Assembly: GCF_013184075.1 (NCBI RefSeq)
Contig: NZ_JABEQQ010000002.1
Span: forward strand, 186,001-250,000
Reading direction: 5' to 3'
DNA from: Lentilactobacillus kribbianus
GTDB lineage: Bacteria > Bacillota > Bacilli > Lactobacillales > Lactobacillaceae
Length of the DNA stretch: 64,000 bases
Position 1 is the stretch's first letter. Each line of letters opens with the position of its first letter. The position numbers and the translations under genes are program-made. The notes below the pieces were generated by a model. The model searched no databases and was not told the origin of the DNA. It saw only the letters and a program-made list of their open reading frames with translations. This document shows, piece after piece, positions 7,671 to 55,133 of the stretch.

Positions 7671-8546
7671 ATGAAGTTTAAGCATTACATATTAGCAGGC
7701 GTTACAGCTCTATCATTCGGGATGGTTGTAAATACATTAACCCCTGATACCGCATTAGGTTCTAGGTATTATCAACCATTTAAAAACGTTCGATACTCTA
7801 TGCCTGCTAGTTGGCGGGGGACTTACTATAATTCGTACGGCGATACCATGAAAGTAAACAAGTATTCTATTTATACTAATGGTCAGGCTGACTATAAGAG
7901 TAGTTGGTCAGGCTGGCGCAAACTTGCTTTTGCTAAAGTCAGCAAAAAGTACTATACACTAAACGCATATGCGACTATGGGAGCCAATAGTAGCCGTCGT
8001 TGGAAGATGTATAGAAAAGGTGGAAATACATATTTGTATCATATTGGAGCTATGAATTCCCGTGCTAAGTGGAAAAAATATGTAAAGCCAATAAAATATA
8101 AAACTGCCAAATATAATGGTTTCTATTTTGATGACTATTCATCTGCTTACCTACAAGCAGATTATGGTTCACAAAAGTTATATACTTCTTCATCTAGTGC
8201 CCAAAAGAAATCAGGAAAGCATATTACTGTAAAGAGTATTTACCACAAATATTATGCTAAATGGGACAACGAGGGTAAGGACGACGTTCTAAGAATTAGA
8301 TATGGCTCTAAAACTTATTTTATAAAAGCTAACGGCGAATTTCAGCCATATAATAGTTGGTTTGATAGTTCCATAAAAAGAATATATTCTCCGTATAGCC
8401 CTAGTTCTAAATCAAAAATTGTATTTCCACATGGAGAAAAATACTCTAAAGCTAAGTATTGGAGTAAAGTACAATATTTTCGAGGCGGGACTTTAGACAC
8501 CAATAGTTGGAAAATGAATAATGGTAAATGGGTTTCTGAATATTAA
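7671..8546 (+). CDS. Secreted basic protein, 291 aa
   Basis: The first ~30 residues (MKFKHYILAGVTALSFGM onward) form a Sec signal peptide. The mature part is very rich in Tyr, Lys, Ser and Trp and lacks cysteine, an LPxTG anchor or a catalytic motif I can name. An early segment MPASWRGTYYNSYGDT resembles the segment IPQKLRGCWRAKDNYH of the secreted protein 10727-11065, suggesting a shared small beta-barrel-like unit. The signal peptide is nearly identical to those of 10347-10694 and 10727-11065. It is controlled by leader A and followed 7 bases later by a mini tRNA-like structure. Function unknown; extracellular or surface-bound by inference. Confidence 0.75.
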   Translation: MKFKHYILAGVTALSFGMVVNTLTPDTALGSRYYQPFKNVRYSMPASWRGTYYNSYGDTMKVNKYSIYTNGQADYKSSWSGWRKLAFAKVSKKYYTLNAYATMGANSSRRWKMYRKGGNTYLYHIGAMNSRAKWKKYVKPIKYKTAKYNGFYFDDYSSAYLQADYGSQKLYTSSSSAQKKSGKHITVKSIYHKYYAKWDNEGKDDVLRIRYGSKTYFIKANGEFQPYNSWFDSSIKRIYSPYSPSSKSKIVFPHGEKYSKAKYWSKVQYFRGGTLDTNSWKMNNGKWVSEY

Positions 8547-8553
8547 GTAAACA

Positions 8554-8599
8554 TCCCTTATCTGGTGATTAAATAACGGTTCGATTCCGTTAAAGGGAT
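8554..8599 (+). ncRNA. Mini tRNA-like structure 1 (no anticodon arm)
   Basis: TCCCTT (8554-8559) pairs with AAGGGA (8593-8598) as an acceptor stem. AACGG/CCGTT (8575-8579 with 8587-8591) closes a 7-base loop TTCGATT, a canonical T-arm directly abutting the acceptor strand. Between the acceptor and T-arm is only TCTGGTGATTAAAT, reminiscent of the D-loop of tmRNA. No anticodon or D-stem fits in 46 bases. It begins 7 bases after a stop codon. A second copy with compensatory stem changes is at 11529-11572. Confidence 0.65.
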
Positions 8600-8659
8600 T
8601 AAACCAAGTAAAAAATGATTCATGCTAAATTTGCACCAATCACTTTAGTTTGATAATGT

Positions 8660-8749
8660 TACCACGTTGTACCACCAGTGTACCACGTTACCAAATCTCT
8701 AATCCCTTGGTATATAAGGGATGTACCACGATACCACGTTATACCACGT
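8660..8749. repeat. Second iteron cluster, inverted, upstream of int
   Basis: Copies of TACCACG(T), the reverse complement of the iteron at 674-774, occur at 8660, 8670, 8681, 8724, 8732 and 8742. They again form two sets of three, around a core containing CCTTGGTATAT. The core is part of a palindrome, ATCCCTT/AAGGGAT (8702-8708 and 8716-8722). This could be a second origin, an incompatibility or regulatory site for the helicase, or the trace of a rearrangement. Confidence 0.65.
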
Positions 8750-8789
8750 ATTTTATAAACTTTTAAAATTAATATATACATACATACCA

Positions 8790-8825
8790 GTCCAATCCTG
8801 ATGACTTTAAAAGCTTGGTCATCCC
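8790..8825 (+). promoter_or_regulatory. Leader motif, copy B, upstream of int
   Basis: GTCCAATCCTGATGACTTTAAAAGCTTGG is a variant of the repeated leader core (positions 8790-8818). Here GATGAC (8800-8805) pairs with GTCATC (8818-8823) to form a small hairpin instead of the long closing stem of copies A and C. The ATGCCTTGCGCCGG repeat follows at 8836-8849, before the integrase start. Confidence 0.5.
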
Positions 8826-8835
8826 GTAACATAAC

Positions 8836-8849
8836 ATGCCTTGCGCCGG
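8836..8849. repeat. ATGCCTTGCGCCGG repeat, copy 2
   Basis: This is an exact copy of the 14-mer at 4645-4658. It ends 22 bp before the integrase start codon, so a protein bound here could control int translation or transcription. The excisionase-like protein is one candidate binder, by inference only. Confidence 0.6.
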
Positions 8850-8871
8850 TACGATATGAGAGGGATAAATT

Positions 8872-10032
8872 ATGACAAATATTAAAGAGTATCAAGACAA
8901 AGACGGTAACACGTTATTTCAATTTCAGTTATATTTGGGTACTGATCCATTAACTGGAAAGAAGAAGCGAACAACCCGCCGTGGTTTTAAGACACAAAAA
9001 GAAGCCCGCCTTGCGTTATCTCGATTAGAGATTCAACTACAAAAAGGTGAGCTTAATAGTATGGCCAATCAAAATTCTACTTTTAATGAAGTATACGACT
9101 TATGGTTTACGCAATACAAGCAAACCGTTAAAGAAAGTACATGGGTGACTACTGAAAGAATATTCAGGTTACACATTACGCCAGTGTTTGGCGATTATCG
9201 TATTTCTAAGATCACTATTAGGCATTGTCAGCAAGCTATTAACGACTGGTTTAATGCTGGACTGTCAAAGTATCATACCTTTTTAAACTATGTGGGTAAG
9301 GTATTGGACTTTGCTATTAACATTGGTCTGATTAGTTATAATCCAGCTAAACGAGTGATTGTTCCTAAGAATAAGAATGATCGCTCTAGGGATAATCTGG
9401 AAAATTATTATAGCAAAGATGAACTTAAACACTTCTTTGAATGCTTACAAGATGATGACAATGCTCCGCAAGCATATCCATTCTTTAGGTTACTGGCCTT
9501 TAGTGGGATGCGTAAGGGTGAAGCTTTGGCATTGACGTGGAAAGATATTAATTTTAGGGATAACACCATTTCTATTAATAAAACTCAATCACGTGGTGAC
9601 AATGCTAAACTGGTGATTCAATCGCCTAAAACAAGGCGGTCTAATCGAAATATTTCCATTGACCCGACAACTGTCTCGGTACTTCATCATTGGCAAATAG
9701 AACAACGAAAATTACTGTTACAACTAGGCTTCAATGTGAACCAAAAAGAAAGTTATGTGTTTACTAACGAGCGGGGCGAGATGTTGCAACCGTCTAAACC
9801 CCGTAAGTGGTTAGAGCATACCTTAAACCGATATGATTTAAAACATGTAACGGTTCATGCCTTTAGACACACTTATGCAACGCTGGCGTTTGAGTCAGGT
9901 TCAAGCGTCAAAGCAGTTCAAGAACAATTAGGACACTCTAGTTACAACACTACTTTAGATATATATACAGCAGTCACTAAGCCCGTAAAAAATGAAACGA
10001 GCAACCGACTAGCTAAGTATGTAAATTTTTAG
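8872..10032 (+). CDS. int: Tyrosine-recombinase integrase
   Basis: The protein is 386 aa. The N-terminal AP2-like arm-binding region (1-60, with GKKKRTTRRGFKTQKEA) is followed by a SAM-like core-binding domain (70-165) and a catalytic domain. Catalytic residues are R214 (SGMRKGE), K253 (PKT), H329 and R332 (HAFRHT), H355 (LGHSS) and Y365 (DIYT), all present. ATG at 8872 follows GAGAGGGAT. It would integrate and, with an excisionase, excise the satellite. Same direction as the CI-like repressor, as in Gram-positive PICIs. Direct 12-bp repeats follow at once and may be arm-type sites. Confidence 0.95.
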   Translation: MTNIKEYQDKDGNTLFQFQLYLGTDPLTGKKKRTTRRGFKTQKEARLALSRLEIQLQKGELNSMANQNSTFNEVYDLWFTQYKQTVKESTWVTTERIFRLHITPVFGDYRISKITIRHCQQAINDWFNAGLSKYHTFLNYVGKVLDFAINIGLISYNPAKRVIVPKNKNDRSRDNLENYYSKDELKHFFECLQDDDNAPQAYPFFRLLAFSGMRKGEALALTWKDINFRDNTISINKTQSRGDNAKLVIQSPKTRRSNRNISIDPTTVSVLHHWQIEQRKLLLQLGFNVNQKESYVFTNERGEMLQPSKPRKWLEHTLNRYDLKHVTVHAFRHTYATLAFESGSSVKAVQEQLGHSSYNTTLDIYTAVTKPVKNETSNRLAKYVNF

Positions 10033-10054
10033 GGGTAGTCAAAGGGGTAGTCAA
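10031..10054. repeat. Tandem 12-bp repeat after int
   Basis: AGGGGTAGTCAA occurs twice back to back (10031-10042 and 10043-10054), the first overlapping the integrase stop. Short direct repeats beside int are typical of arm-type integrase binding sites; no experimental support. Confidence 0.5.
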
Positions 10055-10057
10055 ACA

Positions 10058-10082
10058 TAAAAAAATAGCCCCTAAAAGGGCT
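10058..10082 (-). terminator. Minus-strand terminator next to int
   Basis: AGCCC (10067-10071) pairs with GGGCT (10078-10082); on the minus strand it is followed by ATTTTTTTA. It would stop leftward transcription entering the integrase gene. Confidence 0.5.
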
Positions 10083-10088
10083 GCAAAT

Positions 10089-10154
10089 GCTGATATATAA
10101 GCATTGTTAGGATACGGGGGTCAGAACCAGTATACCCAACTAGTGTATATCAGC
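10089..10154. repeat. 9-bp inverted repeat in the presumed attachment region
   Basis: GCTGATATA (10089-10097) and TATATCAGC (10146-10154) flank 48 bases that include GGGGGTCAGAACC. Attachment sites normally lie just beyond the integrase, so the satellite's right junction may be here. The matching left junction is not in the window, so no core can be named. The rest of the 10083-10276 gap shows no gene. Confidence 0.3.
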
Positions 10155-10276
10155 CGTTATCATTAGCAGTTAAATGCCTTGGTACCGGCTTTTCTTATGT
10201 AATCTAATAAGTAAATTAAAAGTTATATGATGAAATTTAAAATACGTTTTTAAAACCACACAATCAAATAAGCTAC

Positions 10277-10337
10277 GTCCAAATCCTGACGACTCTAAAA
10301 GCTGGCAATTAACTTAGTTGAGGGGCTAAGATTTGGA
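10277..10337 (+). promoter_or_regulatory. Structured leader, copy C
   Basis: This is a near-identical copy of leader A: TCCAAATC (10278-10285) pairs with GATTTGGA (10330-10337), enclosing the core CTGACGACTCTAAAAGCTGG and the CTTAG/CTAAG hairpin. The signal-peptide gene starts 9 bases later. Conservation with copy A runs from the leader through the first codons. Confidence 0.55.
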
Positions 10338-10346
10338 TGATTTACC

Positions 10347-10694
10347 ATGAAGTTTAAGCAATACATATTAACGGGATTAACCGCTCTGACATTTAGTAGC
10401 ATTATGGCCACATCCAGTATTACCGCCAGCGCTCATAGTTATACTTGGTGTTTACGTCCACACTGGGTAACTACTACTAAGCGGGTTAAGATCGCAAAAA
10501 TTCACAATACTATTCCTCGTGCTTACAGTTACAAGGTCAAAAACTACACTGTAAAAAAGGAGACTCATTTAAAAATTCATCATGGATCTAGCTTTTTATG
10601 GCTATCGGAAAGTAAACTGTTCAATACCAACAGTTATTATACTTATGCTGTTTATAATACCAAAGGCCATTGGTTTAAAACCGGCATCAGATAA
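10347..10694 (+). CDS. Small secreted basic protein, 115 aa
   Basis: A signal peptide (MKFKQYILTGLTALTFSS, cleavage probably after ASA near residue 29) precedes an 85-residue basic, Tyr/His/Lys-rich mature chain (KVKNYTVKKETHLKIHHG). No catalytic or anchoring motif is visible. The signal peptide and the leader upstream closely match the 291-aa protein at 7671, while the mature chains differ, as if a common 5' unit had been joined to different bodies. Function unknown. Confidence 0.7.
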   Translation: MKFKQYILTGLTALTFSSIMATSSITASAHSYTWCLRPHWVTTTKRVKIAKIHNTIPRAYSYKVKNYTVKKETHLKIHHGSSFLWLSESKLFNTNSYYTYAVYNTKGHWFKTGIR

Positions 10695-10726
10695 TTAAAT
10701 AATTTATGTATTGGGAGTCTATCAAA

Positions 10727-11065
10727 ATGAAATTAATTAATGTTATCTTAACTGGTGTTACAGCTTTATCCTTAGGAATGATTGTTAATGCATCCACAGC
10801 CAATGCTGCTAAATGGCATACATCAGCCATCCCTCAAAAATTGCGTGGTTGTTGGCGTGCTAAAGATAATTATCATTACGTGTTTAAAATAACCAAGTAT
10901 ACATTTAAATATTCTGGTGAGAAAACAAGTAAGAAAGTCAAATGGCGTTATCTGGGAAAAAATAAATATAGTTTGAAAGACAAAAATGGATCGATTATTC
11001 ATGTTCATTATATTGGTCGCCACAAGTTAACATCAAATTCATATTGGCATACGTACCGTAAATAA
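10727..11065 (+). CDS. Small secreted basic protein, 112 aa
   Basis: ATG at 10727 follows GGGAG at a good distance; an upstream in-frame ATG at 10706 has no ribosome-binding site. The signal peptide MKLINVILTGVTALSLGM ends near TANAA. The mature ~84 residues (IPQKLRGCWRAKDNYH, FKITKYTFKYSG) look like a small beta-rich domain common in lactobacillus surface proteins, with an xRGxW-type start like the MPASWRG part of the 7671 protein. Gene 10347 ends 32 bases upstream, so they may be one transcript. Confidence 0.7.
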   Translation: MKLINVILTGVTALSLGMIVNASTANAAKWHTSAIPQKLRGCWRAKDNYHYVFKITKYTFKYSGEKTSKKVKWRYLGKNKYSLKDKNGSIIHVHYIGRHKLTSNSYWHTYRK

Positions 11066-11083
11066 TTTTTGTTACTTGCCCCG

Positions 11084-11134
11084 GCAATTTTCATGAGGAC
11101 CATGTAGCCACATAAAGAGTAAATTAAAAATTGC
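11084..11134 (+). promoter_or_regulatory. Leader hairpin before the DUF805 gene
   Basis: GCAATTTT (11084-11091) pairs with AAAATTGC (11127-11134), closing a 35-base loop just before the AAAGGAGG Shine-Dalgarno sequence. The loop starts with CATGAGGAC, which shares TGANGAC with the core of the other leaders. It may be a divergent member of that leader group. Confidence 0.35.
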
Positions 11135-11151
11135 GAAAGGAGGTGAATAAC

Positions 11152-11517
11152 ATGGTTGAATCATACAAACGTTTCTGGCATAATATTACTAATTTTTCAG
11201 GGGTTGCTAACCGATCTGATTACTGGTGGCCAATTATCATCAACTACATTTTGGGCGGAATTATTATTGCCATTATTCAATTAGTGGTTGGTCATCCTAT
11301 TGATAGCATCTATAATGTAACTGATTTTCATCTTAATATTATTTCTAAGATAGTAGCTTTTATTGTTTGGTTAGGGACTTGGTCATTAAAAGTACGTCGT
11401 TTACACGATACTAATCGTTCAGGCTGGTGGATTTTAATTAGTATTATTCCACTGATTGGTACCATCTGGTTCTTTATATTAATGGTATTACCATCCAAGC
11501 GAAGTCGCTGGAATTAA
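11152..11517 (+). CDS. DUF805 family membrane protein
   Basis: ATG at 11152 follows AAAGGAGGTGAATAAC, so the product is 121 aa. It has the DUF805 signature: a front FWHNITNFSGVANRSDYWWP segment, several hydrophobic spans, and the conserved VRRLHDTNRSGWW loop near the end, then a last span. DUF805 proteins are small inner-membrane proteins of unknown function, often mobile or multi-copy. Eleven bases after its stop begins a mini tRNA-like structure. Confidence 0.85.
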   Translation: MVESYKRFWHNITNFSGVANRSDYWWPIIINYILGGIIIAIIQLVVGHPIDSIYNVTDFHLNIISKIVAFIVWLGTWSLKVRRLHDTNRSGWWILISIIPLIGTIWFFILMVLPSKRSRWN

Positions 11518-11528
11518 AAGTAAGGGCG

Positions 11529-11572
11529 TCCCGTTTTGGTGATTAACAGCAGTTCGATTCTGCTGACGGGAT
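11529..11572 (+). ncRNA. Mini tRNA-like structure 2 (no anticodon arm)
   Basis: TCCCGTT (11529-11535) pairs with GACGGGA (11565-11571) as a 7-bp acceptor stem ending in a U-G pair. AGCAG/CTGCT (11548-11552 with 11560-11564) closes the T-loop TTCGATT. The linker is TTGGTGATTAAC. Compared with copy 1 the T-loop and the TGGTGATTAA linker are the same, while both stems change on both strands and keep pairing. The base after the acceptor is T and no CCA is encoded. Confidence 0.68.
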
Positions 11573-11625: not shown

Positions 11626-11655
11626 GTCCAAATTCTGACGACTAAAAAAGCTGGG
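11626..11655 (+). promoter_or_regulatory. Leader motif, copy D
   Basis: GTCCAAATTCTGACGACTAAAAAAGCTGGG (11626-11655) is a degenerate copy of the repeated leader core, 54 bases after the second mini tRNA-like structure and 18 bases before a 66-aa membrane protein gene. The long closing stem is mostly lost. Confidence 0.45.
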
Positions 11656-11673
11656 AGTTTAGGGGGAATCACA

Positions 11674-36284: not shown

Positions 36285-36568
36285 ACAATAATTATTAAAA
36301 ACAAATGAGAAGATGAGTAGAAGGTCAGACACTGTTTAGAGAGCTTGGTAAGGTGAAAGCAAGCCGGTAGAGATTTTCGAATATGGTCTTTGATGTTTTG
36401 TTTATTAATGAACTTGCAAGTAAATTAATAATGGTTGACGCTCATTATTGCGTTAATAGAGAAATTACTCTTAAGGCTGATTTTAATTAATCAGTAAATA
36501 AAGGTGGTACCGCGAGGTCTTTCGCCCTTTAGTTGTTGCAACAACTATGGGACGAAAGACCTTTTTGT
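36285..36568 (+). promoter_or_regulatory. T-box leader, methionine specific
   Basis: The T-box sequence AGGTGGTACCGCG is at 36502-36514. The terminator GGTCTTTCG/CGAAAGACC with T-run is at 36516-36567. The specifier loop reads GAATATGG, placing ATG (Met) at 36383-36385, with AGTA on the opposite side. Uncharged initiator/elongator tRNA-Met would thus turn on the downstream methionine transporter. Specifier and operon content agree. Confidence 0.9.
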
Positions 36569-54904: not shown

Positions 54905-55133
54905 ATAAGATAGTAAGGTAATGAAGCGTTGATCAAGAGGATTAGATGGTCTTTTCTAGCTAAAGAGAAAAAACATTTGCTGAAAGTTTTTCTAGAAAAA
55001 CATTGAAGGTTGCTTGAGAGCTTTTAGGCCTATTTGGGCCAATATGAATAAAATATTAAGTGGAGTTTAATAACTCAATTTAGGTGGTACCGCGAGCATT
55101 CGTCCTATTAGTTTAGGAGGAATGCTTTTTATT
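54905..55133 (+). promoter_or_regulatory. T-box leader, valine specific
   Basis: The T-box sequence AGGTGGTACCGCG is at 55082-55094 and the terminator GCATTC/GAATGC with T-run at 55096-55131. AGTA near 54912 faces GAAGGTTG in the specifier loop, giving GTT (Val), in agreement with valS downstream. Rise of uncharged tRNA-Val would open valS expression. Confidence 0.9.

What the first reader, a model, noticed from the sequence alone, without database searches (positions are those of the whole stretch)
8554..11572. Two covarying mini tRNA-like structures in 3' UTRs of accessory genes
At 8554-8599 and 11529-11572 a 7-position acceptor stem, a linker with TGGTGATTAA and a perfect T-arm (5-bp stem, loop TTCGATT) form 44-46 nt elements with no room for an anticodon arm. 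Acceptor stems TCCCTT/AAGGGA and TCCCGTT/GACGGGA, and T-stems AACGG/CCGTT and AGCAG/CTGCT, differ in both strands yet keep pairing, while the loop and linker are the same. That is compensatory change between two copies (seen). The layout recalls the tRNA-like domain of tmRNA without its mRNA part. Both start 7-11 bases after a stop codon, so they may set mRNA 3' ends through RNase P or CCA addition, or act as tRNA decoys (inference).
Basis: partly seen in the sequence, partly recalled or inferred. Interest (0 to 1): 0.85.

Follow-up and report, generated by a model that had tools for sequence, protein, structure and literature searches.

The report
Mini-tRNA elements ending phage genes
Just after the stop codons of two prophage genes sit 45-base RNA elements shaped like a tRNA without its anticodon arm; they belong to a wider family found in phages and lactobacilli that probably lets host tRNA-trimming enzymes cut the ends of messages.

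Summary
Both elements are real, best read as a 6-bp acceptor stem, a short loop with TGG and a 6-bp T-stem with a canonical T-loop (12 bp, as in tRNA). Covariance models place them in a larger family: 44 of 301 Lactobacillaceae genomes (15 of 40 genera), none of 397 other genomes of a phylum sample, and phages including Syn5, S-TIP37, SAC12B and 521B, with up to 8 copies in one contig. Eleven of 12 pairs carry compensatory changes. Of 116 distinct elements, 63 lie at or within 20 nt after a same-strand stop codon, against 5.8 for random positions. No Rfam family matched. The model, made without archaeal sequence, also fits the mini-tRNA that abuts haloarchaeal 5S rRNA, a known tRNase Z signal. 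Best explanation: t-element-like processing signals at gene ends, cut by host RNase Z and perhaps RNase P. CCA is rarely encoded, the host has RNase Z, and 0 of 76 sampled Lactobacillaceae tRNA genes encode CCA. No transcript data were available: cleavage is inferred. A tmRNA kinship is not supported; a decoy role is not shown.

The parts
8554..8599 (+). Mini-tRNA element 1 (6-bp acceptor, TGG loop, 6-bp T-stem, TTCGATT loop, base 73 = T)
   Evidence: R1 hit E 0.008; R3 hit 1.5e-7 in own genome
11529..11572 (+). Mini-tRNA element 2, same layout
   Evidence: R1 hit E 0.008; R3 hit 7.5e-9
7671..8546 (+). 291-aa protein with signal-like start, no Pfam or PHROG family; homologues in L160 (43%) and L108 (38%) are also followed by an element
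11152..11517 (+). DUF805 membrane protein (PHROG moron category); homologues in L107, L114, L146 (62-79%) are also followed by an element
8872..10032 (+). Phage tyrosine integrase between the two element-bearing genes (prophage context)

Best explanation
Shown: a family of mostly 41-46-nt elements, each the acceptor-plus-T-arm half of a tRNA (about 12 bp of stacked helix, canonical T-loop, short linker with GG), often placed at or just after stop codons of phage and prophage accessory genes, on the coding strand. Inferred: they are t-element-like RNA-processing signals. The GG of the linker docks on the T-loop as G18/G19 do in tRNA and makes an elbow; host RNase Z reads elbow and acceptor and cuts after the discriminator base. 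This fixes the 3' end of the upstream message, removes any terminator or downstream cistron and allows CCA addition. Where the element starts beyond the stop codon, RNase P may also cut in front and free a ~43-nt mini-tRNA. In short, transcripts are punctuated gene by gene with the host's tRNA-maturation enzymes.
For: Covariation over a diverse set: 97.0% paired cells, 11 of 12 pairs changed on both sides, score 0.930 against 0.197 shuffled; in rows not used for R3 92.8% and 0.685 against 0.181. 63 of 116 elements at or within 20 nt after a same-strand stop, 5.8 expected at random positions, 6 on the opposite strand. In Haloarcula the model match ends directly at the first base of 5S rRNA in 2 of 2 matches, the place where a t-element is processed by tRNase Z in Haloferax (PMC4326828 passages). 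Where the helix ends at position 72: A73 in 31 of 44, T74 in 34 of 44, CCA encoded in 2 of 44. RNase Z in the own genome, 371 bits, over the cut-off. 0 of 76 tRNA genes in 11 Lactobacillaceae loci encode CCA. Homologous genes keep the element while its stems differ.
Against: No transcript or cleavage data. The two window elements have T, not A, at position 73 and a further pair outside (A-T and G-T), so they are not in the set of 44. RNase P signals are weak: G1-C72 in 22 of 44, A at -1 in 29 of 44. In one search, 12 of 93 elements overlap the stop codon, 6 of them with the whole stop in the acceptor, where a cut in front would remove the stop. 53 of 116 have no called stop nearby. The GG was part of my search patterns. 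A strict 12-bp ruler is not seen: outermost pair at 12 in 44, at 13 in 31, at 14 in 15, at 10-11 in 19 of 116.
Confidence: 0.6

Rival explanations
1. Stability element without a 5' cut, perhaps without any cut: the tRNA-like fold stays on the message as a 3' cap against exonucleases, like the tRNA-like 3' ends of some plant virus RNAs.
For: In 6 of 93 elements the stop codon lies wholly in the acceptor strand, also in S-TIP37 gp32, so the element must stay on a translatable message. Stable helices.
Against: A hairpin would do; it would not need the T-loop and GG conserved. The T-arm plus acceptor layout is what tRNA-maturation enzymes read (PMC4810234 passages).
Confidence: 0.2
2. Free mini-tRNA acting in trans (decoy for a tRNA-binding enzyme, toxin or defence system, or a regulator); the place after a gene only provides transcription.
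For: In L028 a promoter-like sequence (by eye) precedes the element within a tRNA array. Arrays of several elements beside a phage activator gene in L105 and L109.
Against: 63 of 116 elements are tied to stop codons, and several phage contigs carry one after each of several small genes; a trans-acting RNA would not need this.
Confidence: 0.12
3. Relic of tRNA genes or an integrase/cassette recombination site.
For: T-arm ends of tRNA genes are common integrase sites (general knowledge); an integrase lies 270 bp downstream of element 1.
Against: Stem sequences differ between copies yet keep pairing, also between copies after homologous genes; the elements lie on the coding strand (63 against 6); phage contigs hold many different copies.
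Confidence: 0.03
4. Intrinsic transcription terminator.
For: Location just after stop codons; a stable hairpin.
Against: The T-loop is near invariant and an outer helix pairs around it; the window elements are followed by TAAAC and TAATG, no T-run. 12 of 116 elements have a separate terminator-like hairpin within 70 nt (0.25 + 0.25 expected by shuffling), some only 1-3 nt further.
Confidence: 0.02

Closest known systems
Haloarchaeal t-element (mini-tRNA) before 5S rRNA, Haloferax volcanii
   Same: Same anatomy by model R3 (39.1 and 38.7 bits in Haloarcula), 3' end at the known tRNase Z site (PMC4326828 passages; PMC3296008 passages). The 2008 and 2012 papers on it were seen only as citations.
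   Different: There it makes the 5' end of an rRNA in an archaeal rRNA operon; here it follows protein genes of phages and bacteria.
t-elements of plant mitochondria, and mascRNA/menRNA of MALAT1/MEN-beta
   Same: tRNA-like structures cut by RNase P (and RNase Z for mascRNA) next to mRNA or long RNA ends (PMC4919922 passages)
   Different: Eukaryotic or organellar; the sequences and arm make-up were not compared here
Non-tRNA RNase P substrates of phages: phi80 M3 RNA, P1/P7 C4 antisense RNA
   Same: Phage RNAs cut by a tRNA-maturation enzyme (PMC11143913 passages)
   Different: R3 finds no credible copy in phi80 (one match, E 0.08, inside cI); C4 is an antisense RNA (name only)
tmRNA tRNA-like domain
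   Same: Acceptor and T-arm with a stemless D-loop (general knowledge)
   Different: No tag reading frame, no G-U at pair 3
RNase III sites of phage T7 (recalled, no call)
   Same: Host nuclease cuts between genes of a phage transcript; T7-like S-TIP37 and Syn5 carry an element before the capsid gene
   Different: Different nuclease and different RNA fold

Membership tests
t-element (tRNA-like processing signal) | tRNA-like acceptor plus T-arm fold | tested here: met
   archaeal examples fit the same model
t-element (tRNA-like processing signal) | Lies at the end of another RNA, not a tRNA gene | tested here: met
   63 of 116 at or within 20 nt after a stop codon
t-element (tRNA-like processing signal) | Cut by RNase Z and/or RNase P | not testable with these tools
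   Only indirect: CCA rare, A73/T74, RNase Z gene present
tRNA | D-arm and anticodon arm | tested here: not met
   12-14-nt linker in the window elements; no ARAGORN or Rfam tRNA match
tmRNA tRNA-like domain | G3-U70 alanine identity pair | tested here: not met
   Third pair is C-G, G-C, U-A, A-U or U-G, never G-U
tmRNA tRNA-like domain | Tag reading frame between the halves | tested here: not met
   Linker of 12-14 nt; ARAGORN finds no tmRNA
Any Rfam 15 family | Match to a described RNA family | tested here: not met
   Window at gathering score; six loci at E up to 1 and eleven at E up to 0.5: no family match to the elements other than true tRNAs and sub-threshold hits elsewhere
Intrinsic terminator | Hairpin directly followed by a T-run | tested here: not met
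   Window elements followed by TAAAC and TAATG; separate terminator-like hairpins follow 12 of 116 elements

The most novel reading that the evidence does not exclude
Phages of distant hosts (cyanobacteria, lactobacilli) punctuate their transcripts gene by gene with mini-tRNAs: host RNase Z, and in part RNase P, makes the 3' end of each message, which then carries a CCA-tailed tRNA-like cap, a bacterial-virus counterpart of mitochondrial tRNA punctuation.
Probability: 0.45. Interest if true: 0.9.

Novelty: new variant of a known kind. Interest (0 to 1): 0.8.

Why it matters
It would be an unannotated RNA family of phages and prophages that tRNA finders miss because it lacks an anticodon arm. 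If cleavage is confirmed, it shows a route by which phages make message ends with tRNA-maturation enzymes, links bacterial viruses with archaeal and organellar t-elements, and gives a compact natural processing tag. It also marks prophage accessory genes, among them superinfection-exclusion-like and abortive-infection genes.

Tried and rejected
Rejected: chance hairpin; tRNA or tmRNA; an Rfam family; attachment-site relic (stems vary and covary); intrinsic terminator. The exact pattern GGTGATTAA+TTCGATT in 397 Lactobacillaceae genomes gave 8 genomes beside the own one, none with the fold: the linker varies, so only the covariance models reached the family there. A phi80 hit (I hoped for M3 RNA) lies inside cI. 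Lactobacillus phage Bromius, similar in sequence near an element of L028, has no R2 match. A strict 12-bp ruler was not supported. A first script count of tRNA 3' ends was unusable and was redone. DNA of the window region matched only two phage records, over 2-3% of the query and within the integrase part; L035 matched none. Of the five covariation measures, two (number of pairs with a double change, number of pair types) do not clearly exceed shuffles: 24 and 132 of 500 shuffles reach them, 281 and 483, 142 and 0. Literature searches listed no paper on this class in phages; I saw listings, which were capped, and passages of seven papers. Only openly licensed papers are held, so absence from print is not shown.

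Rows dropped: copies identical in sequence and flanks were collapsed (93 elements, 118, 116); matches under 36 nt were left out; matches near a contig end or duplicated were left out (15, 28, 14 and 1 distinct matches remained from 23, 48, 19 and 1 stretches). Two of 118 had no outer helix. and 62 used stricter filters that lose weak matches.
Full report
Observation. The two elements exist as described. Read with a 6-bp acceptor and a 6-bp T-stem both pair perfectly: TCCCTT/AAGGGA with TAACGG/CCGTTA, and TCCCGT/ACGGGA with CAGCAG/CTGCTG, each with loop TTCGATT. They start 7 and 11 nt after stop codons. The pattern of linker plus T-loop was seen in 0 of 100 shuffles of the window. ARAGORN and Rfam at gathering score find no tRNA in the window.

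Finding relatives. An exact pattern search of IMG/VR with the window's linker (23 stretches) and one with a second linker met on the way, TGGTTCTTG (19 stretches), brought phage loci with the same layout. Of the distinct usable matches 6 of 15 and 13 of 14 have both stems; with scrambled linkers 0 of 28 and 0 of 1 do. A Markov-shuffled control of the loci held at that time gave no match to the structural descriptor at the printed score.

Covariance models. R1 (10 phage elements, no window sequence) finds the two window elements as its best hits in the whole genome, E 0.008 each. R2 (28 rows, 25 distinct, window included) shows 95.9% paired cells, 11 of 12 pairs changed on both sides, covariation score 0.917 against 0.209 for shuffles; sliding the partners destroys the signal. 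R3 (63 rows, 59 distinct) gives 97.0% and 0.930 against 0.197. Rows of alignment A7, not used to build R3, give 92.8% and 0.685 against 0.181. Two weaker measures (number of doubly changed pairs, number of pair types) are often reached by shuffles, except pair types. These alignments are fitted to the model and lean towards it. RNAalifold, predicting for itself on A6, returns the T-stem and five acceptor pairs, and adds a possible pair between the bases flanking TGGT/TGGA. That pair is A-T or C-G in 22 of 34 phage rows and 24 of 36 other rows, both kinds in both groups (18 rows without the motif set aside), as if a one-pair D-arm closed the loop.

Distribution. R3 at E 1e-4: 44 of 301 Lactobacillaceae genomes, 15 of 40 genera, own genome included, and only the own genome among 398 drawn from the phylum. 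The own genome holds six matches, four outside the window. R2 at E 0.1 matches 20 of 24 records behind the phage loci, with 8 full-length matches in one contig; some other matches are partial. Named phages with R3: S-TIP37 (1.2e-9), Syn5 (1.2e-7), SAC12B (2e-7), 521B (1.3e-5); weak or partial hits in P-SSP7, LP65, S-P4 and phi80; none in S-CBP4, P-TIM68, T4, lambda and phig1e. L018 and L036 resemble Synechococcus and Prochlorococcus phages; L031 has short matches to such phages; L035 matched nothing; the other phage contigs were not placed except L028 (Lactobacillus brevis phages) and L034 (faecal phages). The pattern scan of species genomes (36 stretches) gave Levilactobacillus, Lentilactobacillus, Lapidilactobacillus, Limosilactobacillus, Pediococcus, haloarchaea and scattered others; R3 matched 32 places in these loci at E 0.01, one of them part of a true tRNA (Lentzea).

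Context. Of 116 distinct elements 63 (26 of 42 in viral contigs, 37 of 74 elsewhere) lie from 7 nt before to 20 nt past the stop of a same-strand reading frame of at least 60 codons; 5.8 are expected for random positions in the same loci and 6 are seen for the opposite strand (frames were called by a simple rule, and random positions include coding sequence). In one search, 12 of 93 overlap the stop codon by 1 to 6 nt. In S-TIP37 the stop of gp32 is inside the acceptor strand. Thirty-one upstream proteins were listed; of 14 put to Pfam, nine have a family: DUF805 (2), DUF4352, SHOCT, DUF308, DUF3862, Abi_2, a non-specific endonuclease, and a helicase; five have none. PHROGs of the moron category, including superinfection-exclusion-like and abortive-infection ones, match six of the upstream proteins tested. 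Not every carrier gene is a prophage gene: L106/L110 follow a 306-aa protein that looks by eye like a reductase (not searched). In Lapidilactobacillus bayanensis a Sie-like gene and an Abi_2 gene in a row each end 7 nt before an element, near an integrase. Homologous genes keep the element in other species while its stems differ: the window DUF805 protein is 62, 65 and 79% identical to three others that carry one, and the 291-aa protein 43 and 38% to two.

Limits. There is no transcript evidence; sampling began from patterns; copies are related and were not counted as independent events; 53 of 116 elements have no called stop nearby, including arrays beside a phage activator gene in L105 and L109, which may have another role.

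Noticed in passing
window about 8787-8814, 10277-10305, 11628-11656; upstream of gene 7671 (L001:537); alignment A8: A conserved ~28-nt motif GTCCAAAnnCTGAYGACnnnAAAAGCTG upstream of accessory genes and the integrase, also in other Lactobacillaceae loci (18 aligned). In L120, L125 and L128 it starts 3 nt after a mini-tRNA. No Rfam match in the window at gathering score.
   Followed up: partly
L105:1770-2345 (own genome, near C2:31.8-32.3 kb) and L109:1660-2250: Arrays of mini-tRNA-like elements, some with longer inserts (by eye), next to a gene of the PHROG transcriptional-activator kind (L105); one in L109 (about 2188-2246) has an anticodon-arm-like hairpin but no D-stem (by eye). ARAGORN finds no tRNA there.
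   Followed up: partly
L089-L096 and L102 (same-genus genomes): An element with stems CGACTAA/ATAGTCA-type sits 49-50 nt after a ~245-aa gene at what looks like the same site in several species.
   Followed up: no
L036:1250-1297 and L036:2205-2252: Two phage elements whose linker can itself form a 3-bp hairpin (AAG/CTT and GGG/CCC, by eye), perhaps an intermediate between mini-tRNA and tRNA.
   Followed up: no
window 36296-36532 and 54920-55110: Two T-box leaders at gathering score.
   Followed up: no
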